A stretch of DNA of 64,000 nucleotides from Nocardia rhamnosiphila NBRC 108938. GTDB taxonomy: Bacteria > Actinomycetota > Actinomycetes > Mycobacteriales > Mycobacteriaceae. The stretch is from the NCBI RefSeq assembly GCF_000720425.1, contig NZ_JOAJ01000005.1, positions 1 through 64,000 of the forward strand. The letters run 5' to 3'. The first letter of the stretch is position 1, and every line of letters starts with the position of its first letter. Of the stretch, positions 50,004-63,700 are shown piece after piece. The notes below the pieces were generated by a model. The model was given only the letters and a program-made list of their open reading frames with translations. It did not search any database and was not told the origin of the DNA. The position numbers and the translations under genes were made by a program.

Positions 50004-51086
50004 TCAGCTCTTCGATTCGGTGCTCTGGGGCAGTCCGGCGAGGGTGCCGATCCGGGCGACCGCGTCCGCGACGATCCGGTCGATCAGCTCCTGGCAGGTC
50101 GGCAGATCCTCCAGGATGCCGCTCACCTGGCCCGCCGCCAGCACCCCGGCCTCGGTATTGCCCTCGACCAGCCCGGCGCGCAACAGCATCGGGGTGTTGG
50201 CCGCCATGATCACCTGGGACCAGGTGAGGTCCTTGGCCTTACGCATGGCCAGACCGTCGCGGACCAGCGTGGACCATTTCATCCCGGTCATGCTCTTGAA
50301 CCGGGCCGCATTGCCCACGGCGGCCGTGAGGCCACGGACCCGCCCCGAGTTCTCCAGCTTCTGCACGAGTTCGGTGTTGAGCACCCGGTGCGGCATACCG
50401 TCGACTTTGGTGGACACCACTGTTTCGCCCAGTTGGCGGCGCAGGTATTCCTGCTTCACCGAATCCGGGACGCTGCTTTCCTGCGTGAGCAGGAAACGAG
50501 TGCCCATCGCGACCCCGGCGGCGCCGTAGGCGAGGGCGGCGGCGAGGCCGCGTCCGTCGAAGAAGCCGCCGGCCGCGACCACCGGGATATCGACCGCGTC
50601 CAGGACCGACGGCAGCAGCAGGGTGGTGGCCACCGGCCCGGTGTGCCCGCCGCCCTCACCACCCTGGACGATCACGGCGTCCGCGCCCCAGGAGGCGACC
50701 TTCACCGCGTGCTTGGCGGCGCCGATCGACGGAACCACCACCACGCCGGCGTCTTTCAGCTTGGCGATGAGGTCCTTCTTCGGCGCCAGGGCGAAGGAGG
50801 CGACCTTGACGTTCTCGCGGATGAGCAGATCGATCCGCTCGGGCGCGTCCGAGGCGTCGGCACGGATGTTCACCCCGAACGGTTTATCGGTCTGCGCCTT
50901 GGTTTTGGCGATGGCCGTTTCCAGCTCGTCGTAGGTCATGGTGGCCGAGGCCAGAATGCCCAGCCCGCCGGCATTGGAGGTGGCCGAGACCAGGCTCGGT
51001 CCCGCCACCCAGCCCATACCGGTCTGCACGACGGGATGTTCGATCCCGACCAGTTCGGTCAGCGGGGTCCGCAGCCGGGGTGTCAC
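50004..51086 (-). CDS. ipdC: IpdC, nitronate monooxygenase-like FMN enzyme of ring degradation
   Basis: 360 residues, NPD/2-nitropropane dioxygenase TIM barrel. FMN-site patterns HPVVQTGMGWVAGPSLVSAT, DAVIVQGGEGGGHTG and VVAAGGFFDGRGLAAALAYG. In M. tuberculosis Rv3553 (IpdC) is a 5-OH-HIC-CoA oxidoreductase that forms HIEC-CoA rather than a nitronate enzyme. GTG start overlaps ipdB (GTGA). Last gene of the operon, before a strong terminator. Confidence 0.9.
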   Translation of the reverse strand: MTPRLRTPLTELVGIEHPVVQTGMGWVAGPSLVSATSNAGGLGILASATMTYDELETAIAKTKAQTDKPFGVNIRADASDAPERIDLLIRENVKVASFALAPKKDLIAKLKDAGVVVVPSIGAAKHAVKVASWGADAVIVQGGEGGGHTGPVATTLLLPSVLDAVDIPVVAAGGFFDGRGLAAALAYGAAGVAMGTRFLLTQESSVPDSVKQEYLRRQLGETVVSTKVDGMPHRVLNTELVQKLENSGRVRGLTAAVGNAARFKSMTGMKWSTLVRDGLAMRKAKDLTWSQVIMAANTPMLLRAGLVEGNTEAGVLAAGQVSGILEDLPTCQELIDRIVADAVARIGTLAGLPQSTESKS

Positions 51087-51841
51087 TGCGGGACCTCCCG
51101 GTCGCGGATCTTCTTCGGATCCAGGACCTCGCGGATGATCCGCAGTTCCTCGGTGGTGGGCAGCCGGGACTCTTCGGCCGTGCCCAAGTCGGCGATCTCG
51201 AACGAGGTGTTCTCCGCGACCTCACCGGCGGTGACCCCGGGGTGCAGACTCAGCGCGCGCATCGTGTGGTCCGGGCCGTTGAAATCGAAAACGCCCAGGT
51301 TGCTGACCACCCGGTGGATGTGATGGAAGCGGAACGCGGGATTTTCCGGGTCGACCTTGTCATAGCCGACGCCCGCGACGATATCCACCTTCTCGCCGAA
51401 CACCCGCCTGGTGTGCCGTCCGACCCAGTAGCTGGTGGGGTGGTTGATGGTGTTGCCGGGGGCGCCGCGGACGCCGAACATCTGCCGGGTCGGCTGCTGT
51501 AGCGGGCCGAAGGCCGAAAGGTTCTGGTTGCCGTAGCGGTCGATCTGGTTGGCGCCCATGACCACATGGCGGCGGCCCGAGGCCAGCACATCGAACACCT
51601 TGCGGAACGGGATCCAGCCCTCCACCGGCGCCTTACCGCCGATGGGCGGGGTCTCGGCGAGGAAGAACGCTTCGCCGTCGGAGATCAGCAGATCGGGTTC
51701 GAAGGTGAGTTTCGCCAGCCGCGCGCCCAGCTGTGCCATCGGCGACATGGGACTGGCGAAGATCTCTCCGGCGTCGCGGAAGATCTCGGCGCAGGCGACC
51801 GCGCACACCTCCGCGCGGGTGATGGTTTCGGTGCTGGTCAC
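51083..51841 (-). CDS. ipdB: IpdB, beta subunit of COCHEA-CoA ring-opening hydrolase
   Basis: 252 residues, class I CoA-transferase-like fold (CDPDLLISDGEAFF-type region and VVMGANQIDRYGNQNLSAFG). IpdB with IpdA forms a heterotetramer that opens the last steroid ring hydrolytically rather than transferring CoA. GTG start overlaps the ipdA stop. Its stop overlaps ipdC. Confidence 0.92.
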   Translation of the reverse strand: MTSTETITRAEVCAVACAEIFRDAGEIFASPMSPMAQLGARLAKLTFEPDLLISDGEAFFLAETPPIGGKAPVEGWIPFRKVFDVLASGRRHVVMGANQIDRYGNQNLSAFGPLQQPTRQMFGVRGAPGNTINHPTSYWVGRHTRRVFGEKVDIVAGVGYDKVDPENPAFRFHHIHRVVSNLGVFDFNGPDHTMRALSLHPGVTAGEVAENTSFEIADLGTAEESRLPTTEELRIIREVLDPKKIRDREVPQ

Positions 51842-52716
51842 CGCTCCTCCTTGAATCGCGCGACGGCGGCCTGGTAGTCGGCTTCGGAACCGCTGAGGTA
51901 GGTGTCGACGAAGGTCTGCCAGGTCTCCGGCGACCCGGCGGCTTCGACATAGTGCCGCTGGAATTTCTCGTCCCGGCCGTAGCTCTCACCACCGAGGGTG
52001 AAATGCGCGCCGTTGGGGGCTTCGACCACCGCGTCCACCATCATGCGGTTGAGCAGCAGCGCCTGCTGGGGCACGGTTTTCACCAGTTCCTCGGTCTCCA
52101 CGAGGCGTTCCACCGAGAGGTAGCGCTTCTCGGCGGCCAGGCAGAACAGGTCGTCCATGTAGGGGTCCACGCCCTGGTAGGCGGCATTACCGTACGCGTC
52201 GCCGATATTCAGGTGCACCAGCGCGGCGTCGAGGTTCAGGGCCGGCATGGCGATCAGGGTTTCCGGACGGCCGCCCGGGCCCGGGTACGGCGAGGTCACG
52301 GTCCGGAGTTCGCCGTCCCAGAAGTTCGGTACATCCGAGCCCAGGCCGGCGCGGATCGGCAGGAACGGCAGTCGCGCCGCGGCCGCCTCGAGCCCGCATT
52401 TGAGCATGCCCTCGTCCATCTCGCGGGCGATGATCTGCCCGGAGGTGCGGGCCTTCGCGAACCAGGGGTCGTAGAACGGCGCCGAGTCCAGGGAGACGAA
52501 CCCGTAGTAGGCCTTGCGGACCTTCCCGGCCGAAAGCAGCAGCCCCAGGTCCGGCCCCCCGTAGGTGACCACCGTCAGGTCGGTGACGTCCGACCGCAGC
52601 AGGGCGCGCACCAGGGCCATCGGCTTACGCCGGGAACCCCAGCCGCCGATGCCGATGGTCATCCCGCTGCGCAGTTCGCCGACGATCTCGTCCAGCGTTT
52701 TCCGCTTGTCTCGCAT
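51838..52716 (-). CDS. ipdA: IpdA, alpha subunit of COCHEA-CoA ring-opening hydrolase
   Basis: 292 residues from ATG 52716 (MRDKRKTLDEIVGELRSGMT); a GTG at 52731 is possible but the family starts at the ATG. Signatures GMTIGIGGWGSRRKPMALVR, VVTYGGPDLGLLLSAGKV and MDEGMLKCGLEAAAARLPFL match mycobacterial IpdA closely. It works with IpdB on COCHEA-CoA. In the operon after echA20, coupled to ipdB. Confidence 0.92.
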   Translation of the reverse strand: MRDKRKTLDEIVGELRSGMTIGIGGWGSRRKPMALVRALLRSDVTDLTVVTYGGPDLGLLLSAGKVRKAYYGFVSLDSAPFYDPWFAKARTSGQIIAREMDEGMLKCGLEAAAARLPFLPIRAGLGSDVPNFWDGELRTVTSPYPGPGGRPETLIAMPALNLDAALVHLNIGDAYGNAAYQGVDPYMDDLFCLAAEKRYLSVERLVETEELVKTVPQQALLLNRMMVDAVVEAPNGAHFTLGGESYGRDEKFQRHYVEAAGSPETWQTFVDTYLSGSEADYQAAVARFKEER

Positions 52717-52732
52717 GGTCTTCCGTTCCACG

Positions 52733-53509
52733 TCAGTTCTTGTCCTTCTGCGCCGCCAGGTCTTCGTCGAAGCGTTCGCGGATCTCGTCGGAGGCTCCGG
52801 AAAGATTCAGTTCGAAGGTGAACCCCTGCTCGAAGCGGTAGCTGCGGTGCACGTCCTGCAGGTCGATGCCGTTGAGGGCGCGTTTGGCGGCCCGGATGAC
52901 CCGGCCGTCCTTGGCCGCGATGCTCTCGGCGACCTTCAGCGCGGTGGCGTCGAGTTCCTCCCGGGGGACCACCTCGAGTACGGAGCCGTAATGGTGCAGC
53001 TGCTGGGCGGTGGCGGTGCTCGCGGTGAAGAAGAGCGCGCGCATGAGGTGCTGGGGGACCAGCCGGGCGAGGTGGGTGGCGGCGCCGAGCGCACCGCGGT
53101 CGACCTCGGGTAGGCCGAAGGTCGCGTCGTCGGAGGCGATGATGATGTCGGAGTTGCCGACCAGGCCGATCCCGCCGCCCAGGCAGAAGCCCTGGACCGC
53201 GGTGACCACCGGGACCGGGCAGTCGTAGACCGCGCCGAATGCCTCGAAGCATCCGTGGTTGGCGTCGATGAGCGCCTGATGCCCGGGTTTGCGCTGGATC
53301 TCCTTGATATCGACGCCCGCGTTGAAGCCGCGGTTCTCGGCGCGCAGCACCACCACGCGGGTCTGCGGGTCGCGCCCGGCGGCGCGAATCTCGTCGGCGA
53401 GGGCGAACCAGCCGTCCGAGGGTATGGCGTTGACCGGCGGATAGTCGACCGTGACCACGGCGATACCGGCGGATTCCGAATGGCGCTTGATCCCCATCGC
53501 GTATCCCAT
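52733..53509 (-). CDS. echA20: EchA20, HIEC-CoA hydrolase of the crotonase family
   Basis: 258 residues. Crotonase oxyanion motifs NRGFNAGVDIKEIQRKPGH and GFCLGGGIGLVGNSDIIIAS, then LPEVDRGALGAATHLARL; VDYPPVNAIPSDGWFALAD matches mycobacterial EchA20 strongly. EchA20 opens ring D hydrolytically to give COCHEA-CoA. An alternative ATG is at 53497. First gene of echA20-ipdA-ipdB-ipdC, with a KstR2 box in the divergent promoter. Confidence 0.92.
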   Translation of the reverse strand: MGYAMGIKRHSESAGIAVVTVDYPPVNAIPSDGWFALADEIRAAGRDPQTRVVVLRAENRGFNAGVDIKEIQRKPGHQALIDANHGCFEAFGAVYDCPVPVVTAVQGFCLGGGIGLVGNSDIIIASDDATFGLPEVDRGALGAATHLARLVPQHLMRALFFTASTATAQQLHHYGSVLEVVPREELDATALKVAESIAAKDGRVIRAAKRALNGIDLQDVHRSYRFEQGFTFELNLSGASDEIRERFDEDLAAQKDKN

Positions 53510-53535
53510 CTCGCATCTCGAGCATCTTGGCTAAG

Positions 53536-53551
53536 CAAGCAATTGCTTGGT
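53536..53551. promoter_or_regulatory. KstR2 box, echA20 / SDR divergent promoter
   Basis: CAAGCAATTGCTTG (53536-53549) is a perfect 14-bp palindrome; the KstR2 14-mer AGCAATTGCTTGGT (53538-53551) has one mismatch in the fixed bases. On the plus strand a -10-like TAGGTT (53551-53556) and the SDR GTG 7 nt after it follow, so the SDR message is probably leaderless. Confidence 0.78.
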
Positions 53552-53562
53552 AGGTTAACACG

Positions 53563-54360
53563 GTGGCACTCGAAATCGACCTGTCCGATCGCGTCGTTCT
53601 GGTAACCGGCGGCGTCCGCGGCGTCGGCGCCGGGATCAGCCGCGTCCTGCTCTCCGCCGGGGCGACCGTGGTGGCATGTGCCCGCCGTCCCGGCGATACC
53701 CCGGTCGAGGTGGACGGGCGGGAGATCGACTTCCTGCCGTGCGATGTCCGCGACCCGGCAGCCGTGGCGGAGTTGATCGCCGAGATCGTCCGGCGGCACG
53801 GGCGGCTGGATCACGCGGTGAACAATGCCGGTGGCGCCCCCTATGCCCTGGCGCAGGACGCCAGCCCCAAATTCCACACCAAGATCATCGAGCTGAATCT
53901 GCTCTCCGCCCTGCACGTCGCCCAGGCGGCACACGCGGTGATCAGCAGGCAGGAGGACGGCGGCTCGATCGTCAATATCTCCAGCCTCAGCGGCCACCGG
54001 CCTTCCCCGGGCACGGCCGCCTACGGGGCGGCCAAAGCGGGAGTAGACGCACTGACCGTCTCCCTCGCCGCGGAATGGGCCCCGAAGGTCCGGATCAACT
54101 CACTGGTGGTCGGCGCGGTGGAAACCGAATTGAGCGCTCTGCACTACGGTGACGCCGACGGAGTGGCCGCCGTCGGCCAGACCATCCCGATGGGGCGGCT
54201 GGCCCGGCCCGAGGATGTCGGCAACGGCGTGGCCTTCCTGCTCTCCCCACTGGCCGGGTACATCTCCGGGGCGACCCTGCAGATCCACGGCGGCGGCGAA
54301 CCCCCGGCCTTCCTGTCGGTGGCGACCGCCGGCCACTCCGATGCCGCGGCGAAGGCCTGA
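53563..54360 (+). CDS. Short-chain dehydrogenase, Rv3549c-like
   Basis: 265 residues. TGGVRGVGAGISR is the cofactor loop, NNAGGAPYA the NNAG motif, and SISSL…Y-x-x-x-K (INISSLSGHRPSPGTAAYGA, then AKAGVD) the active site. Divergent from echA20 and followed by a second SDR gene, the same layout as Rv3549c-Rv3548c. The substrate is unknown, probably a CoA ester from rings C/D. GTG start at the predicted transcription start. Confidence 0.86.
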   Translation: MALEIDLSDRVVLVTGGVRGVGAGISRVLLSAGATVVACARRPGDTPVEVDGREIDFLPCDVRDPAAVAELIAEIVRRHGRLDHAVNNAGGAPYALAQDASPKFHTKIIELNLLSALHVAQAAHAVISRQEDGGSIVNISSLSGHRPSPGTAAYGAAKAGVDALTVSLAAEWAPKVRINSLVVGAVETELSALHYGDADGVAAVGQTIPMGRLARPEDVGNGVAFLLSPLAGYISGATLQIHGGGEPPAFLSVATAGHSDAAAKA

Positions 54361-54403
54361 CCTCACCTCGAACAGATATCGACCATCGACGATAGGAACG
54401 GAC

Positions 54404-55315
54404 ATGGCAACCGAGGGCATCTGCGCCGGACGGATCGTGATCATCACCGGCGCCGGCCGGGGTATCGGCCGGGCGCACGCCCTGGCCTTCGCCGCCGAGG
54501 GAGCGAAGGTCGTGGTGAACGATCTCGGCTCGACCCTCAGCGGTGAGTCGACCGCGGAAACCCCCGCCGAGCAGGTGGTCTCGGAGATCCGGGCGGCCGG
54601 CGGCGAGGCCGTGGCCAACGGCGACGACGTGGCGAGCTGGGAGGGCGCACAGCGGCTCATCCAGCAGGCCGTGGACACGTTCGGCGGCTTGGACGTCCTG
54701 GTCAACAATGCCGGATTCGTCCGCGACCGGATGCTGGTCAATCTCGCCGAGGACGAATGGGATTCGGTGGTCCGCGTCCACCTCAAGGGTCATTTCGCCA
54801 CCATGCGGCACGCGGCCGCGTACTGGCGCGCGGAATCCAAGGCGGGTCGTACGGTGGACGCCCGGATCATCAACACCAGCTCCGGCGCCGGTCTGCAGGG
54901 CAGTGTCGGCCAGGGGAACTACGGTGCCGCCAAGGCGGGTATCGCCGGTCTCACCCTGACCGCCGCGGCCGAATTCGGGCGGTACGGCGTCACGGTGAAC
55001 GCGATCGCCCCCTCGGCACGCACCCGGATGACCGAAACCGTCTTCGCTGACATGATGGCCGCACCCGATGACGGGTTCGACGCCATGGCGCCGGAGAACA
55101 TCTCACCGATCGTGGTGTGGCTGGGCAGCGCGGAATCGGCCGGTGTCACCGGCCGGATGTTCGAGGTCGAGGGCGGTCGCCTCGCCTTGGCGGAGGGCTG
55201 GCGCCACGGGGTGCCGGTCGACCGCGGCGCGCGGTGGAATCCGGCCGAACTCGGCACCGTGGTCTCGGAGCTGATCGCGAAAGGCGCGACCCCGGAACCC
55301 GTATACGGCGCGTAA
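54404..55315 (+). CDS. Short-chain dehydrogenase, Rv3548c-like
   Basis: 303 residues. IVIITGAGRGIGRAHALAFA and VVVNDLGS match the hydroxyacyl-CoA-dehydrogenase-like SDRs (HSD17B4 type). The active site is INTSSGAGLQGSVGQGNYGA then AKAGIAG. The C-terminal EGGRLALAEGWRHG is shared with Rv3548c. Probably NAD-dependent oxidation of a steroid-derived hydroxyacyl-CoA. 43 bp after the other SDR, with AGGAACGG site. Followed by a terminator hairpin. Confidence 0.87.
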   Translation: MATEGICAGRIVIITGAGRGIGRAHALAFAAEGAKVVVNDLGSTLSGESTAETPAEQVVSEIRAAGGEAVANGDDVASWEGAQRLIQQAVDTFGGLDVLVNNAGFVRDRMLVNLAEDEWDSVVRVHLKGHFATMRHAAAYWRAESKAGRTVDARIINTSSGAGLQGSVGQGNYGAAKAGIAGLTLTAAAEFGRYGVTVNAIAPSARTRMTETVFADMMAAPDDGFDAMAPENISPIVVWLGSAESAGVTGRMFEVEGGRLALAEGWRHGVPVDRGARWNPAELGTVVSELIAKGATPEPVYGA

Positions 55316-55330
55316 GGATTCACCACTGTT

Positions 55331-55377
55331 CGAACGGGCCCCTCCCGTCGTCGGCCGACGACGGGACGGGCCCGTTT
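55331..55377 (+). terminator. Intrinsic terminator after the SDR pair
   Basis: Long imperfect stem (AACGGGCCC…GTCGTC and its complement) around GGCC, ending GTTT; it closes the KstR2-controlled SDR operon. Confidence 0.75.
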
Positions 55378-55631
55378 CGATAGGAATGTCCGACTGTCCA
55401 GCTACTGGACCCCGCACCGGGGTGTTGTGATCTATTCCATGCTCTCCGGGGCGCTGTCCGCTGTGTACTGGCGCCCGAGCAGCGGATAGCCGGGACCGTT
55501 CGCTCCGTGTCGCCACTTCGTCATGCACCGGTGAGGGTGCTGGTTTACCATGGGCAACCATCTGTTCGTTCTACCCGGAAGGCGTCATCGCCGGGCGAAT
55601 CCGCACTATCGATCGAGGGGTTGACCGGCGC
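55378..55631. other. Intergenic region before the repeat protein
   Basis: About 250 bp with no gene. It should contain the promoter of the repeat-protein operon; no clear -35/-10 pair or palindrome is evident. Confidence 0.5.
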
Positions 55632-56966
55632 ATGGCCGTGGGGCGCATCAAGCGATTGCTTGCAGTAGCCGGAGCGGCCGGATGCCTGGGGCTGGTCGGC
55701 GGGCCGGCACTCGCTCAAGCGAATCCGGGCCGGGGGCCGATGACCGAACAGGGCCCCTCCGGCAGTGGCGGCGACGGCCTCGCCCCGCCGCTCCCGGGCG
55801 CGCAACCTCCCGAGGGCGGCCCGCTCGCCATACCGGGCAGCGAACCGGAGTCGGGCGATGAGACCGGAGAGCGAGCTTCGACCGAATCGGGCGCACCCAC
55901 CGGTCTCGGAATGGGTAGCAGTGCGCCGGTGCCGGATTCCGGTTCCGTTGGTAGCGGTGCGGATTCCGGTGACATCGCGCAGTGGCAGCCCCTGGGCATC
56001 CCCGGCCGGGTCCAGGAGCCGGAAGCGGTCGACACCGCCGAGCCGGCGCCGGACGCTGCTCCGCGACCGGATCCTGCGCCGGTTGCCGAACCTCTCGGCC
56101 CGGTGGGGTTGGGCACCGCTCTGGGTACCATTCTGGCCACCGGTTCGGCCGCCGTCGGTTCGGCCGCCGCGGCGCCCCTGGGGGTCACCGGCTCCGCCGC
56201 GCTCGGGGCCGGATCGGCAGTCCTCGGAACGGGTTCCGCCGCAGCGGGTTCGGCCGGACTCGGAGTGGGTGCGACCGGTTCCGCCGCACTGGGCAGCGGT
56301 TCGGCAGCGCTCGGTACCGGTTCGGCCGCGGTGGGTTCGGCCGGAGCCGGGGTACTGGGTACGGGATCCGCCGCGCTGGGTTCGGCGGGAGTCGGAGTGC
56401 TCGGCACCGGTTCGGCCGCGACGGGCTCGGCCGGGTCCGGGATACTCGGCACCGGTTCGGCCGGTGTGGGTTCGGCTGCCGTGGGCTCCGCGGCTACCGG
56501 GTCCGCTGCCGCCGGTTCGGCGGCGACCGGCTCCGCCGCGCTGGGTTCGGCCGGTGTGGGTTCCGCGGCCCCGCTGCTGCTCCTGCTGCTGCCGGCGCCC
56601 CCGGTTCCGGCGCCCCCGGTCGGGCCGCCACTGGCATTACCGGCGCCCGGCGGCGGTGCGGGTGCCGGTGCTCCGGCAATCGGTGTGGCCGTTCCGGTGC
56701 CCGCGGTCGCGCCGCCGGCCGTCCCCGCGGCGCCCGCTCCCGGTGGATCCGCGCCGTCGGTCGCCGCCGCGCCGCCGAATCATGCGGTGCGTCCGACGAA
56801 CGCCGAGGGTCTGCTGCCCGAACCCAAGGTCCTGTCGGTGATCGGCGGGCTGATCGCCTTGGCCATCGCCGGCGGCGGTTCGGCCGTGATGAGCTATCAC
56901 AGCGCCGCACAGGCACAGGCGCGGGTCGATGCCGCGCGGGCCGAATTCTTCGGAACGGGTGCGTGA
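55632..56966 (+). CDS. Secreted/surface Gly-Ser-Ala repeat protein
   Basis: 444 residues. Signal peptide 1-30 (ALAQANPG cleavage region). Residues 31-165 are a Pro/Glu/Ser/Asp-rich linker. Residues about 168-313 are repeats of GSAA/GSAG (for example LGTGSAALGSAGVGV), with three near-exact 15-residue units at 239-283. A Leu6 run and a Pro/Ala/Val-rich stretch follow. Residues about 400-421 form a membrane helix (VIGGLIALAIAGGGSAVM), with a short amphipathic tail. Likely tethered outside the membrane. Function unknown. First gene of a three-gene set. Confidence 0.8.
   Translation: MAVGRIKRLLAVAGAAGCLGLVGGPALAQANPGRGPMTEQGPSGSGGDGLAPPLPGAQPPEGGPLAIPGSEPESGDETGERASTESGAPTGLGMGSSAPVPDSGSVGSGADSGDIAQWQPLGIPGRVQEPEAVDTAEPAPDAAPRPDPAPVAEPLGPVGLGTALGTILATGSAAVGSAAAAPLGVTGSAALGAGSAVLGTGSAAAGSAGLGVGATGSAALGSGSAALGTGSAAVGSAGAGVLGTGSAALGSAGVGVLGTGSAATGSAGSGILGTGSAGVGSAAVGSAATGSAAAGSAATGSAALGSAGVGSAAPLLLLLLPAPPVPAPPVGPPLALPAPGGGAGAGAPAIGVAVPVPAVAPPAVPAAPAPGGSAPSVAAAPPNHAVRPTNAEGLLPEPKVLSVIGGLIALAIAGGGSAVMSYHSAAQAQARVDAARAEFFGTGA
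56139..56571 (+). repeat. GSA-coding tandem repeat array
   Basis: The DNA encodes a 15- to 45-bp periodic array of GGTTCGGCC/GGCTCCGCC-like units. Three consecutive 45-bp units (about 56346-56480) are the clearest copies. This type of array is prone to copy-number change. Confidence 0.75.
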
Positions 56967-56971
56967 TCGCG

Positions 56972-57484
56972 ATGACGCAGAGCCGGACACAGAGCGCCCG
57001 GGCCTATCGGCGGGTCGCCGCCGCGGTCGACGCGGTGTGCGCGATCGCCGCCGATGCCGACGCCACCACCCTCGATGAAGTGGTGGACGCGGTGGCCGCC
57101 GAGCGGGGCCGACCGATCGAAATCGCCGATGCCGACCTCGGTCCCGGCGTCTGCGGCCAGCGTCGCTACTACCCGACCAAGGACATCATCGTGCTCGCCA
57201 GTGCGCTGCCGAGCCGGGACCATACGCTGGCCCACGAACTGGGGCATATCGTCTTCGATCACGAGGGCGCCCCGGCCCCCGAGGTGACACTGGAGGTGAG
57301 CGACGAGCTCATCGCCTACATGCTGAGTCAGCGCGCCCATCAGACCGCACTCGAGGACGGCGAGGACGATCAGTCCGAATGGGAGGCCGAAACTTTCGCC
57401 GCCATGCTGATGACGCGGCTGCGCGTGTTCAACAGCCGGGGCGCGGGCGTCTCGGTCCTTCGATTCGATGAGGCTCTGGGATGA
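56972..57484 (+). CDS. ImmA/IrrE-type zinc metallopeptidase
   Basis: 170 residues. The zinc-binding HELGH motif is at residues 88-92 and the third ligand Glu lies in EWEAETFA at about 138-140. YYPTKDIIVLASALPSRDHT before it is typical. ImmA/IrrE peptidases usually cleave a transcription repressor of the XRE/DdrO class. A GTG at 56963 overlapping the upstream stop is an alternative start. Coupled downstream to a membrane protein (ATGA). An EspR-like HTH gene sits convergent 1.25 kb away. Confidence 0.88.
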   Translation: MTQSRTQSARAYRRVAAAVDAVCAIAADADATTLDEVVDAVAAERGRPIEIADADLGPGVCGQRRYYPTKDIIVLASALPSRDHTLAHELGHIVFDHEGAPAPEVTLEVSDELIAYMLSQRAHQTALEDGEDDQSEWEAETFAAMLMTRLRVFNSRGAGVSVLRFDEALG

Positions 57485-58503
57485 CGTTCTGGTTGACCGC
57501 CCTGATCGTCTGGGTCGCCGCGGGCGCACGGGTGGGACGGGTACTCGTCAAGCCCGCGACCACCGCGCGGGTGGCGATAGTGATGGCCGTTTCGGCGGTC
57601 GCGCTGGCCTGTACCGCCGCGGTGCCCGATGTGGCATTGGCCGTCGACAACTTACTGCCCGGCGGATTGCCGGCGGGCCGGCTGTCGGAAGGGCTGGTGG
57701 TCTCCGCCTGGCTGCTCTTCGCTGCCGCGACCTCGGTGGTCGCCTCGGCGGCCTGGCCGGTGGTTTCGCGACGTAATCTGCGCCAGATCGCCGGGGGCAT
57801 ATACGGAACCGGGCTCTGCGCCGTCGCCGGCACCCTCAGCGCATCGTTCACCGCGGGGTGGGTGGTCACCGCGGCGGCCGGTGCCTTCATCGTGGTGACC
57901 GGTCTGCGCAACCTGAGCTGGACTGCGCTCGGCCGGGGTATCGCCGTCTACGTGACGGGGACCGCGCTGGTGGTCGCGCTGGCCGTCGGGCAGGTACAGC
58001 GGGGGCTCACCGGAGCTACCCGTTCCGGGCCGGGCGAGCCGGCCTGGGCCTGGCCGCTCTGGCAGCTGGCCGCATTGCTCGTCGCTTTCGGCGCGGTGTG
58101 GATCGTGGTGGAAATGTGGGTGCGGGCACGGTTGTTGTTGCGCCGGGTGCAGACGTTGCACAAAGTCCTGGTCGAACGCTTTCCGGAGGTCGTTCAGGAG
58201 GAGACCGGGACATCGACCCAGCTCAAGGCGTCGGATCGGGTCGCGCAAATCATGGATGCGCTGTATCTGCAGTCGGGCGGCGGTGTCGAGATCGCGGCTG
58301 CCGGGGAGCCTTCCGCCGCGGTGTCCGCCCGTGCGGAACGGGTGGCGCAGTGGGCCCGGAATCCGCTGGGCCGGGCCGTGGTGGACTCCCGCTGGATCGC
58401 ACCGCCGGAGGGCATCAGCCCGCGCGGATGGGTGCAGGCGATCGCCGCGGCGTTCGATGCGCAGCCGGAACCGACCGAGCGACCGACGGTCACGGTTACG
58501 TAG
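57481..58503 (+). CDS. Polytopic membrane protein, MAB_1171c-like
   Basis: 340 residues with about seven membrane helices in the first 230 residues (for example MTFWLTALIVWVAAGARVGR, AWLLFAAATSVVASAAWPVV, VVTAAAGAFIVVTGL), then a cytoplasmic helical tail. It resembles the actinobacterial putative transporter family often encoded beside ImmA/IrrE and HTH genes. Start overlaps the peptidase stop (ATGA). Substrate unknown. Confidence 0.78.
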   Translation: MTFWLTALIVWVAAGARVGRVLVKPATTARVAIVMAVSAVALACTAAVPDVALAVDNLLPGGLPAGRLSEGLVVSAWLLFAAATSVVASAAWPVVSRRNLRQIAGGIYGTGLCAVAGTLSASFTAGWVVTAAAGAFIVVTGLRNLSWTALGRGIAVYVTGTALVVALAVGQVQRGLTGATRSGPGEPAWAWPLWQLAALLVAFGAVWIVVEMWVRARLLLRRVQTLHKVLVERFPEVVQEETGTSTQLKASDRVAQIMDALYLQSGGGVEIAAAGEPSAAVSARAERVAQWARNPLGRAVVDSRWIAPPEGISPRGWVQAIAAAFDAQPEPTERPTVTVT

Positions 58504-58685
58504 TTGCCCGAGGTATGCGGTACGCCCGTTACGTCACTGTGATTATCCCCGGCGAGGCCCAGTAATCGTGCCGAGCGGTCGGTCTGCATTCTTCCGTGCC
58601 GCGGAACTTCGGGCGCACCGAGAGCCTCGCCGAAGGAATTTTTCCCGTCCACGGGAACATCGTGCGGGGATTTCCGGGGCACAGG

Positions 58686-58729
58686 CGTCGGCGCGGTGCG
58701 ACCCCGATGGGGATCGCGCCGCGCCGACG
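58686..58729. terminator. Hairpin between convergent genes
   Basis: Near-perfect stem of about 20 bp (CGTCGGCGCGG… and complement) around GAT, directly downstream of the EspR-like gene and convergent with the membrane-protein gene. Confidence 0.6.
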
Positions 58730-58736
58730 GGGTCTG

Positions 58737-59153
58737 CTATTCGGTGCCGTCCGGCGGAATTTCGGGCAAGCCTTCGCTCGCGCGCAGTTTTTCCGCCATG
58801 GAGGTGAGCAGGTTCTGCGACTCCTCCGACAGGTCGAAGGCCCGGCTGGACAGCCGCCGCAGACCGTAACCCTGTAGCTGCGATAGAAGTTCCAGGTCGT
58901 GGTCGATCTTCGCGGCGTAGATGTCGTTGAAGAAGTAGTCGGGCTTCACCTTGAAGAACTTCGCCAGCGCCGCAACCGTCTCGTCGGAAGGATTCGTACG
59001 CTGGCCCGACCGTAACTGCGACAGATACGGTTTGGAGATCGGATGACCGGATGCCGTCAGGGCGGCCGCTACCTCTGCATTGGTATGCGGCTTTCGCCCC
59101 GGGGGATGCACGGTTTCGAACAGCTTGTTCAGCCGCGCCGCGAAATCAGCCAT
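58737..59153 (-). CDS. EspR-like XRE family regulator
   Basis: 138 residues. FAARLNKLFETVHPPGRKPH, then SKPYLSQLRSGQRTNPSDET and AALAKFFKVKPDYFF is almost diagnostic of EspR, the mycobacterial nucleoid-associated regulator of ESX-1 and PDIM genes; it has the HTH at about 25-60 and a C-terminal dimerisation helix. ATG 59153 was preferred over GTG 59177 for family fit. Convergent with the ImmA operon. The promoter region (59154-59220) is A/T-rich. Confidence 0.85.
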   Translation of the reverse strand: MADFAARLNKLFETVHPPGRKPHTNAEVAAALTASGHPISKPYLSQLRSGQRTNPSDETVAALAKFFKVKPDYFFNDIYAAKIDHDLELLSQLQGYGLRRLSSRAFDLSEESQNLLTSMAEKLRASEGLPEIPPDGTE

Positions 59154-59510
59154 TGTGAGCCGCCCAATTCCCTTCACTGTACTAACAGACGTTATCTCGG
59201 ATACCTATCATTGATATTAGCGGCTCAGTAACTGAAAACCTACGCCTGAATCAGGATTTCCTTGAAGCTTCCAGGCGCATATCAGGGGAAGTGGACCGCG
59301 GTACCGCGTTTGCGGGTTGCCCGCACCGGACTTGTGGACCTCTGATACGGCCAGGTAGCCGCCCGTCGCGGGGGTCTTCCCGGGCGGGCGGCCAGTAGCC
59401 TCTGGATAGCTGGTATCCCTTCCGGAGCTGTGCCGAAGCCATTGTGTGGCGTACGACACGTCTACCGAAAACTGAGATGAACGTTCAACCTACCGGCTGA
59501 ATTTTGTGAA

Positions 59511-59560
59511 GGACACTGGGCCCGTACGGGTCCGACTGTGGTCCGTACGGGCCGATGTCC
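59511..59560 (-). terminator. Intrinsic terminator after fadA5
   Basis: Stem of 11 bp (GGCCCGTACGG / CCGTACGGGCC) extended by GGACA/TGTCC, lying 28-77 bp past the fadA5 stop; an A/T-rich stretch follows on the minus strand. Confidence 0.72.
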
Positions 59561-59587
59561 TGTCGCAATAGGGAATTGGAGGCGCCA

Positions 59588-62166
<2,579 letters not shown>

Positions 62167-62178
62167 CAACCTGCGCTT

Positions 62179-62215
62179 CTTCCGGCCCCGAGCACCAGGT
62201 GTTCGGGGCCGGAAG
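62179..62215 (+). terminator. Terminator hairpin after cyp125
   Basis: 18-bp near-perfect stem (CTTCCGGCCCCGAGCACC and complement), 12 bp past the stop codon. Confidence 0.7.
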
Positions 62216-62251
62216 TGTAAGTACGGGGTGATCCGCGAGTGGACTCCGGAC

Positions 62252-62294
62252 GAACCGAGCCCCGCACACCGGTGTGGTGTGCGGGGCTCGGTTC
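62252..62294. terminator. Second hairpin, 19-bp perfect stem
   Basis: Arms at 62252-62270 and 62276-62294 with GGTGT loop; no T-tract on the plus strand. Probably terminates the minus-strand KSI-like transcript, which ends at 62347. Confidence 0.7.
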
Positions 62295-62346
62295 ATACCC
62301 CGGTGGTGAGGCGGCCGGGCCGGGAGGGAAACCGGCCGGCCACGAC

Positions 62347-62763
62347 TCAATCGACCGGTGTGGCTGTCGCCATGGCCCGCTCTACTTCCCAGAAAGCGCG
62401 CAGGGCGGCGATCTTGCCCGACTCGTCCACCTTGTAGGTGAAGACGCCTTCGGCGTCGATGCGATGCCCGCCGAGGGTGGTGCGGATCGTCCCGGTGAAG
62501 GCGACCTCCGCACCGCAGGCGAAGGAATCACCGAACAGGAACTCGATCGAATCCGTTCCCGCGATGGCCTTGTCCCAGAAGGCGCCGATGGCCTCCGGCC
62601 CCCGGTGTCCTTTGCCCTCGGGGTCGAAACCGGACGGTCCGACGGGATCTTCCACAATGCCGTCCACGGCGAACAACGCGAGCCAGGCGTCCTTGTCCCG
62701 GGCGCGCACGGCGGCCTGTGAGGCCAGACCGGCCGCGCGCGCGGGATGTTCCTCGCTGCTCAT
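62347..62763 (-). CDS. SnoaL/ketosteroid isomerase-like protein
   Basis: 138 residues, NTF2-like fold: RARDKDAWLALFAVDGIVED then PVGPSGFDPEGKGHRGPEAI and TGTIRTTLGGHRIDAEGVFT. The active-site Asp/Tyr of true ketosteroid isomerase is not certain. In steroid clusters such proteins are often delta5-delta4 isomerases or accessory proteins. ATG has AAAGGAACCA. 55 bp downstream of the F420-type gene on the same strand, so probably one operon. Confidence 0.85.
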   Translation of the reverse strand: MSSEEHPARAAGLASQAAVRARDKDAWLALFAVDGIVEDPVGPSGFDPEGKGHRGPEAIGAFWDKAIAGTDSIEFLFGDSFACGAEVAFTGTIRTTLGGHRIDAEGVFTYKVDESGKIAALRAFWEVERAMATATPVD

Positions 62764-62818
62764 TGGTTCCTTTCGGCAAAGCGGTGTGCCACCACTTTCG
62801 TGGCGGCACACGCGGAGG

Positions 62819-63700
62819 TCAGTTGATCGGGTTCTGGATGTACTCTTCGGCGAACTTGCGCAGCGCATCCTGCTTCGCGGCGAGTTCACCGTCGAATCCG
62901 ATACCGGCGGCCAGCCAGGGGATCACGATCGCATCGGTGACACCGGCGTCGTACTGCTCCTGGTAACCGTCGCGGCCGAACTTGTCGATGCAGACCGCCT
63001 GGATCTCGAACGGCACCTCGGCCCGCCCGTATTCGGCCCGCAACTCACCCAGCCGGGCAATGGTGGTCTGCAGATCGTCGAACTTCATCATGGCCGAGGT
63101 CCAGCCGTCCCCGACCTTCGCGGCGCGGCGCAGTGCCACCTCGGTGTGGCCACCGATGTAGAACGGGACCGGTTCGCTCGGTGCCGGGCTCATCTGCAGT
63201 TCGTCGAAATCGAAGAATTCGCCGTGGAATTCGACCATACCGCCCGCGAGAACCTTCTTGATGACCTCGATCATCTCGTCGACCCGGGCGCCGCGGCGCG
63301 CGTAGGGCACGCCGCACCACTCGAATTCCTCCGGCGCCCAGCCGATACCCACCCCGAACCCGAACCGGTTACCGGACAGATTCGCCACCGACCCGACCTG
63401 GCGGGCGAGTAGCAGCGGATTGCGGGACCCGAGTTTGAGCACATTGGTGTAGAAGCGCAGCCGGGTGGTCACCGCGGCCATGGCGGTCGCGGCGATGAGC
63501 GGATCCACCCACGGCGTGTCCGGACCCCAGAAACGGCTGCCGTCCGGGGTGTAGGGATACTTCGCCGCCTGGGATTTCATGTAGAACAGCGAATCCGGCA
63601 GGGCGATCGAGGTGAACCCGACCTCCTCGGCGGTCCGGGCGAGCGCGGGCAGCTGGTCCAGCGGGCTCAGCGCGATTCCGAGGCTGAACTGCAGGGTCAT
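62819..63700 (-). CDS. LLM-class F420-dependent oxidoreductase
   Basis: 293 residues, luciferase-like TIM barrel: SLGIALSPLDQLPALARTAE, GFGVGIGWAPEEFEWCGVPY, VPFYIGGHTEVALRRAAKVG. It resembles Rv3520c, an F420-type oxidoreductase in the mycobacterial cholesterol region. It probably uses F420 to oxidise or reduce a steroid-derived carbonyl. ATG start. First gene of a pair with the KSI-like gene. Confidence 0.87.
   Translation of the reverse strand: MTLQFSLGIALSPLDQLPALARTAEEVGFTSIALPDSLFYMKSQAAKYPYTPDGSRFWGPDTPWVDPLIAATAMAAVTTRLRFYTNVLKLGSRNPLLLARQVGSVANLSGNRFGFGVGIGWAPEEFEWCGVPYARRGARVDEMIEVIKKVLAGGMVEFHGEFFDFDELQMSPAPSEPVPFYIGGHTEVALRRAAKVGDGWTSAMMKFDDLQTTIARLGELRAEYGRAEVPFEIQAVCIDKFGRDGYQEQYDAGVTDAIVIPWLAAGIGFDGELAAKQDALRKFAEEYIQNPIN

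What the first reader, a model, noticed from the sequence alone, without database searches (positions are those of the whole stretch)
55632..59153. GSA-repeat surface protein coupled to ImmA peptidase, membrane protein and convergent EspR-like regulator
An exported, repeat-rich, membrane-anchored protein is followed by an IrrE-like peptidase and a polytopic membrane protein, opposite an EspR homologue. ImmA peptidases normally cleave HTH repressors. This could be a signal-to-proteolysis-to-transcription circuit with an extracellular sensor or structural component. It is the least explained module here.
Basis: inference. Interest (0 to 1): 0.7.

Follow-up and report, generated by a model that had tools for sequence, protein, structure and literature searches.

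The report
EspR gene with conserved protease-membrane module
In Nocardia and many related bacteria, including mycobacteria, the gene for the DNA-binding regulator EspR sits beside a conserved set of genes for a protein-cutting enzyme, a membrane protein and usually a surface protein, which suggests that EspR is controlled by being cut in response to a signal at the cell envelope.

Summary
Four genes lie at 55632-59153: A, an exported repeat protein with one membrane span; B, an ImmA/IrrE metallopeptidase; C, a polytopic membrane protein; and, convergently, D, an EspR homologue. A, B and C overlap as a coupled operon.

The module is old and conserved. In a sample of 301 family genomes, all 89 with an orthologous B have D within 3.5 kb, in 11 genera and two gene orders. 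D also occurs without B (49 of the 138 genomes with D). Across 22 Nocardia relatives D is 98.6-100% identical, while B and C drift.

B models as the IrrE fold and keeps HExxH in all 29 sequences aligned. D column 103, just before an arginine as in the Leu|Arg bond at which PprI/IrrE cuts DdrO, is Ala/Ser in 120 of 120 D proteins from genomes with B, against 12 of 62 without an orthologous B. The phylogenetic control is weak.

Best reading: B cleaves D in its dimerisation domain under control of C, plus A where present. Cleavage is inferred, not shown. It is a new variant of the XRE/ImmA repressor-protease pair, with EspR as the partner.

The parts
55542..55559 (+). conserved element GGTTTACCATGGGCAACC upstream of A, near-palindromic, with a TANNNT -10-like core; possible promoter or operator
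   Evidence: kept at the same place upstream of A in the aligned Nocardia relatives except a more diverged copy in L132 (11 sequences aligned); single occurrence in the window at up to 3 mismatches; role inferred
55632..56966 (+). gene A: exported low-complexity protein, 444 aa, 24 GSA triplets, one C-terminal membrane span
   Evidence: ORF directly upstream of B in relatives
56127..56585 (+). GSA-rich repeat region of A (about residues 166-318)
56829..56963 (+). membrane span (about residues 400-418) and conserved cytosolic-looking tail (421-444, ...AQARVDAARAEFF...) of A
   Evidence: tail pattern recovered by rule in 94 of 101 loci; orientation from arginines in the tail, inferred
56972..57484 (+). 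gene B: ImmA/IrrE (M78) metallopeptidase, 170 aa; alternative GTG start at 56963
57233..57247 (+). HELGH catalytic motif of B (residues 88-92)
57481..58503 (+). gene C: polytopic membrane protein, 340 aa, with C-terminal soluble part
   Evidence: AlphaFold model pLDDT 80, pTM 0.70; distant relative of MAB_1171c/DUF6545 proteins by profile
58682..58736 (.). strong hairpin between the convergent genes, likely bidirectional terminator
   Evidence: role inferred
58737..59153 (-). gene D: EspR homologue, 138 aa (alternative GTG start at 59177)
   Evidence: PDB EspR E 6e-38; 98.6-100% identical in 22 Nocardia relatives
58842..58847 (-). codons of D residues 103 and 104 (Ser-Arg), predicted cut site
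   Evidence: association with B; position by analogy with DdrO Leu|Arg; inferred

Best explanation
A-B-C and D are one regulatory module. D is a DNA-binding EspR-type regulator. B is a soluble ImmA/IrrE metallopeptidase. C is a membrane protein with a soluble C-terminal part, and A is an envelope-exposed protein whose short tail faces the cytosol. A signal at the envelope, taken up by C (with A where present), lets B cut D in its C-terminal dimerisation domain, most likely at the bond before Arg104, so that D can no longer dimerise and its target genes change expression. Shown by computation: the gene set, its linkage over the family, the fold and active-site motif of B, the near invariance of D in Nocardia, and the association of D column 103 with the presence of B. 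Inferred: that B cuts D, where it cuts, what the signal is, and that A and C control B.
Against: No cleavage was shown. D is kept at 100% identity in G004 and G005 without B or C and occurs without orthologous B in 49 of 138 family genomes and about 80 of 198 Mycobacterium-like genomes, so most of its conservation is not owed to B. Genomes without B are largely clustered: on the D tree B and column 103 each change 7 times, and the independent-pairs test had only 2 well-supported pairs and no significance, though none went the opposite way. Twelve of 62 D proteins without B keep Ala/Ser, so loss of B is not always followed by change. EspR-like partners of other ImmA proteins carry Leu or Met at this place, so Ala/Ser is not a general rule for ImmA substrates. 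A was not evident in 3 of 5 Mycobacterium loci and in the Skermania locus, so A is not essential to the module. One Mycobacterium-like genome (G442, 63% complete) has B and no D found.
Confidence: 0.6

Rival explanations
1. D is a housekeeping nucleoid-associated regulator that controls the A-B-C operon, and B acts on another substrate (for example the A tail or C), so that A-B-C is a target of EspR and not its controller.
For: D is near invariant in Nocardia whether or not B is present; Mtb EspR binds near many genes of cell wall function and autoregulates (PMC3315491, passages); the A tail is conserved across genera.
Against: B belongs to a family whose known members cut HTH repressors; D column 103/104 tracks the presence of B, which this reading does not predict.
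Confidence: 0.25
2. The module is a DNA-damage or phage-defence switch of the CapH-CapP type.
For: PADLOC capP and capH models match B and D weakly; CapP is among the closest folds.
Against: None of 10 neighbouring proteins matched PADLOC; the neighbours are steroid catabolism genes; CapH-CapP as I recall it has no A or C component.
Confidence: 0.08
3. The genes are only neighbours by descent, with no common function.
For: D survives without A-B-C in G005 and in many other genomes.
Against: Linkage in 89 of 89 genomes over 11 genera with two gene orders and different surroundings; joint duplication and joint loss of A-B-C.
Confidence: 0.03

Closest known systems
PprI/IrrE with DdrO (Deinococcus)
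   Same: M78 metallopeptidase with HExxH and IrrE fold; HTH repressor with C-terminal dimerisation domain; Arg just after the known or predicted cut
   Different: here the protease gene is followed by a membrane protein and preceded by a surface protein; D is EspR; PprI carries a further GAF-like domain that B (170 aa) is too short for; no cleavage shown here
CapP/CapH (CBASS-associated protease and repressor)
   Same: PADLOC capP and capH matches; CapP fold match
   Different: no defence genes among the 10 neighbours tested; A and C added
EspR of Mycobacterium tuberculosis
   Same: D is a sequence homologue over nearly its whole length; Mycobacterium-like loci carry the same B-C set beside EspR
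   Different: the Mtb locus itself was not examined; from memory no gene lies between Rv3849 and Rv3850, so A-B-C would be absent there; the PDB Mtb sequence has Gln at column 103 (alignment)
MAB_1171c family / DUF6545 membrane proteins beside ImmA and XRE genes
   Same: C aligns by profile with such proteins (probability 97.6, E 4.6e-12); other Nocardia loci have EspR-like XRE, ImmA and a MAB_1171c-type protein together
   Different: C is far below the curated cut-off (10.2 bits against 100) and has no DUF6545 match; those loci have no A

Membership tests
ImmA/IrrE metallopeptidase (M78) | sequence match above curated cut-off | tested here: met
   Peptidase_M78 27.3 bits, cut-off 22
ImmA/IrrE metallopeptidase (M78) | HExxH and downstream Glu | tested here: met
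   H88, E89, H92, E136 and E140 invariant in 29 aligned sequences; which Glu binds metal is recalled from the family, not tested
ImmA/IrrE metallopeptidase (M78) | IrrE fold | tested here: met
ImmA/IrrE metallopeptidase (M78) | cleavage of an HTH regulator | not testable with these tools
   needs an assay
EspR | homology over HTH and C-terminal domain | tested here: met
   E 6e-38, residues 3-129
EspR | nucleoid association and dimerisation | not testable with these tools
   reported for Mtb EspR (PMC3315491, passages)
EspR | single close homologue in the genome | tested here: met
   one match at E <= 1e-3 in the window's genome; several relatives have extra, more distant copies
MAB_1171c family / DUF6545 | match above curated cut-off | tested here: not met
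   NF042915 10.2 bits against 100; no DUF6545
MAB_1171c family / DUF6545 | profile similarity to members | tested here: met
   hhalign 97.6%, E 4.6e-12 over 229 columns; two of the eight proteins in that profile are themselves below the cut-off
CBASS CapH-CapP | neighbouring defence genes | tested here: not met
   10 neighbouring proteins, no PADLOC match at E <= 1e-3

The most novel reading that the evidence does not exclude
EspR, known as a nucleoid protein and virulence regulator of mycobacteria, began as, and in many Mycobacteriaceae still is, the substrate of a membrane-controlled ImmA-type protease that reports on the cell envelope; lineages that lost the protease set EspR free to become a constitutive nucleoid protein, and the old cut site then drifted.
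Probability: 0.4. Interest if true: 0.85.

Novelty: new variant of a known kind. Interest (0 to 1): 0.7.

Why it matters
EspR is studied as a virulence regulator and nucleoid protein, with no protease partner in the papers searched (whole-word searches 'EspR' with 'IrrE' and 'EspR' with 'ImmA' found 0 papers each in the held library; most subscription papers are not held). If the reading is right, EspR has an ancestral off-switch linked to the envelope, which makes its regulation testable in harmless relatives, and gives a named cut site, a named protease and a candidate sensor. It would also be a case of an ImmA/IrrE switch wired to the cell surface.

Tried and rejected
Considered and rejected: the GSA repeat as the essential feature (its sequence is not kept outside Nocardia, and G021 lacks it); a steroid-specific role (the steroid neighbours are shared with Skermania and genus g36 but not with the Rhodococcus-like, Gordonia or Mycobacterium-like loci); a defence island; a known RNA (no Rfam match 54000-61000). 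Fold comparison of C gave nothing firm (best PDB E 0.15; best viral-library E 0.0097), so it says only that C is a helical membrane bundle. A phylogenetic test of column 103 was too weak to be significant. A first script counted four Nocardia loci without D as contig ends; two (L148, L162) are, and two (L161, L169) instead hold a second A-B-C copy where D would lie within the fetched stretch. Rows dropped: 33 of 122 family genomes with only weaker ImmA matches (81.9 bits or less) were not counted as orthologous B; five of the 20 non-Mycobacterium genomes called 'without B' carry such a weaker ImmA. The paralogous module loci were picked because D and B matches lay close together, so they are not a random sample. 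Paper searches by prefix for EspR and ImmA returned unrelated medical papers.

Full report
What is there. The window is Nocardia: the closest named relatives by B are N. fusca, N. testacea, N. sienata and N. grenadensis (98%). At 55632-59153 lie four genes. A (444 aa) has a signal-like start, 24 GSA triplets against a shuffle mean of 2.0 and maximum of 8, and one C-terminal hydrophobic span. B is an M78 peptidase, C a polytopic membrane protein, D an EspR homologue. A-B and B-C overlap by four bases (A-B if B starts at GTG 56963); B-C overlaps in 13 of the 21 aligned loci, and in the other eight C starts 16-245 bp after B. C and D converge on a strong hairpin.

Conservation in the genus. Of 23 same-genus relatives, 21 have a match for C at E <= 1e-3 (20 nearly full length, plus a 36-residue remnant in G005), 20 have B at 1e-81 or better, and 22 have D at 98.6-100%. 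G023 has none of the three at orthologue strength. In the 20 genomes with all of B, C and D they lie together. D differs from the window's by 0-2 residues while carrying 18-64 nucleotide changes, nearly all at third positions (22 relatives). Identity to the window in the same loci: D median 100%, B 81.9, C 66.1, steroid thiolase 83.3, CYP125 80.3. In G005 A-B-C is gone and D remains between the flanking steroid genes, with the remnant of C. In G004 D lies at a contig end and neither B nor C was found.

Beyond the window's relatives. A scan of named genomes with the B alignment kept the best 80 of 132 loci, 78 Nocardia and 2 Antrihabitans. C was found in 79, and D in 76. Of the four without D, L148 and L162 end at or soon after B, while L161 (N. 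nova NBRC 15556) and L169 (N. elegans) hold a second A-B-C copy in the downstream stretch, so that D, if present, lies beyond it. In 301 family genomes, 122 had some ImmA match; 89 stood apart at 116.8 bits or more, the rest at 81.9 or less. All 89 had D within 3.5 kb: 81 convergent and 8 on the same strand with D upstream, the latter all in genera g25 and g38. In ten g39 genomes the distance is about 3.0-3.4 kb; in the one fetched (L228) a G6PD-like gene and a small reading frame lie between. D was present in 138 of 301 at E <= 1e-28. In 198 g45 genomes B was present in 118 and D in 196; 113 of the 118 have D within 2.5 kb, two have it on another contig, two have it at a place not printed, and one (63% complete) has no D found.

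The surface protein. Upstream of B in other genera is usually a reading frame with a signal-like start, low-complexity middle (Thr/Pro-, Asn/Gly- or Ser/Asp-rich rather than GSA), a membrane span and a tail of the type Q-x-R-[IV]-x-A-A-R-x-E-F-F. A rule for span plus tail found it in 94 of 101 loci; the rule may let in false hits (L225, where one search showed no clear A). No clear A was seen in three of five Mycobacterium loci; in the other two the tail is shorter and more different.

Does B cut D? I compared D from genomes with and without orthologous B. Of 127 columns, number 103 ranks first for residues in genomes without B that are unseen in genomes with B of the same clade: 90% in Mycobacterium-like and 55% in other genera. 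It is Ala or Ser in 114 of 114 D proteins with B and in 11 of 40 without. Added later: 6 of 6 with B; 1 of 8 and 0 of 14 without. Arg104 is present in 120 of 120 with B and 47 of 62 without. PprI cuts DdrO between Leu108 and Arg109 (PMC4374696, passages) in a C-terminal loop (PMC10904395, passages), and EspR dimerises by its C-terminal domain (PMC3315491, passages). So the bond 103|104 is the best guess for a cut. Against this: genomes without B are clustered, the tree-based test is not significant, and EspR-like partners of other ImmA proteins have Leu or Met here.

Verdict. The four-gene set is a real, old, functional module (near certain). That B cuts D is likely but unproven. The kind is known (repressor plus ImmA-type protease); the EspR partner, the membrane protein and the surface protein make it a new variant. 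In the held library no paper joins EspR with IrrE or ImmA, and DUF6545 is in none; MAB_1171c is in one, on antibiotic tolerance and biofilm in M. abscessus (PMC8707978, passages).

Noticed in passing
L161 and L169 (N. nova NBRC 15556, N. elegans): A-B-C appears twice in tandem; in L169 a remnant of the SDR gene end lies between the copies. D was not within the fetched stretch.
   Followed up: partly
L108, L109, L116: Three of the other Nocardia sets with a MAB_1171c-type membrane protein lie beside a gene that looks like a cytochrome P450 (recognised by eye).
   Followed up: no
many assemblies, e.g. L123, L140, L145, L147: Contigs end a few hundred bases upstream of B, as if the GSA repeats of A break assemblies.
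   Followed up: no
window 55542-55559: Near-palindromic element upstream of A kept in most aligned Nocardia relatives.
   Followed up: partly
window 50004-63700: The surroundings are steroid catabolism genes; the thiolase passes the curated model for steroid 3-ketoacyl-CoA thiolase (716.7 against 515 bits).
   Followed up: partly
G009 C169, G017 C75, G001 C5: Extra copies of D at 88, 84 and 66% identity, one of them in pieces with a stop.
   Followed up: no
model of C: Weak fold similarity to membrane proteins of actinobacterial phages, such as one of Gordonia phage Sephiroth (E 0.031, TM 0.68 on the target).
   Followed up: no
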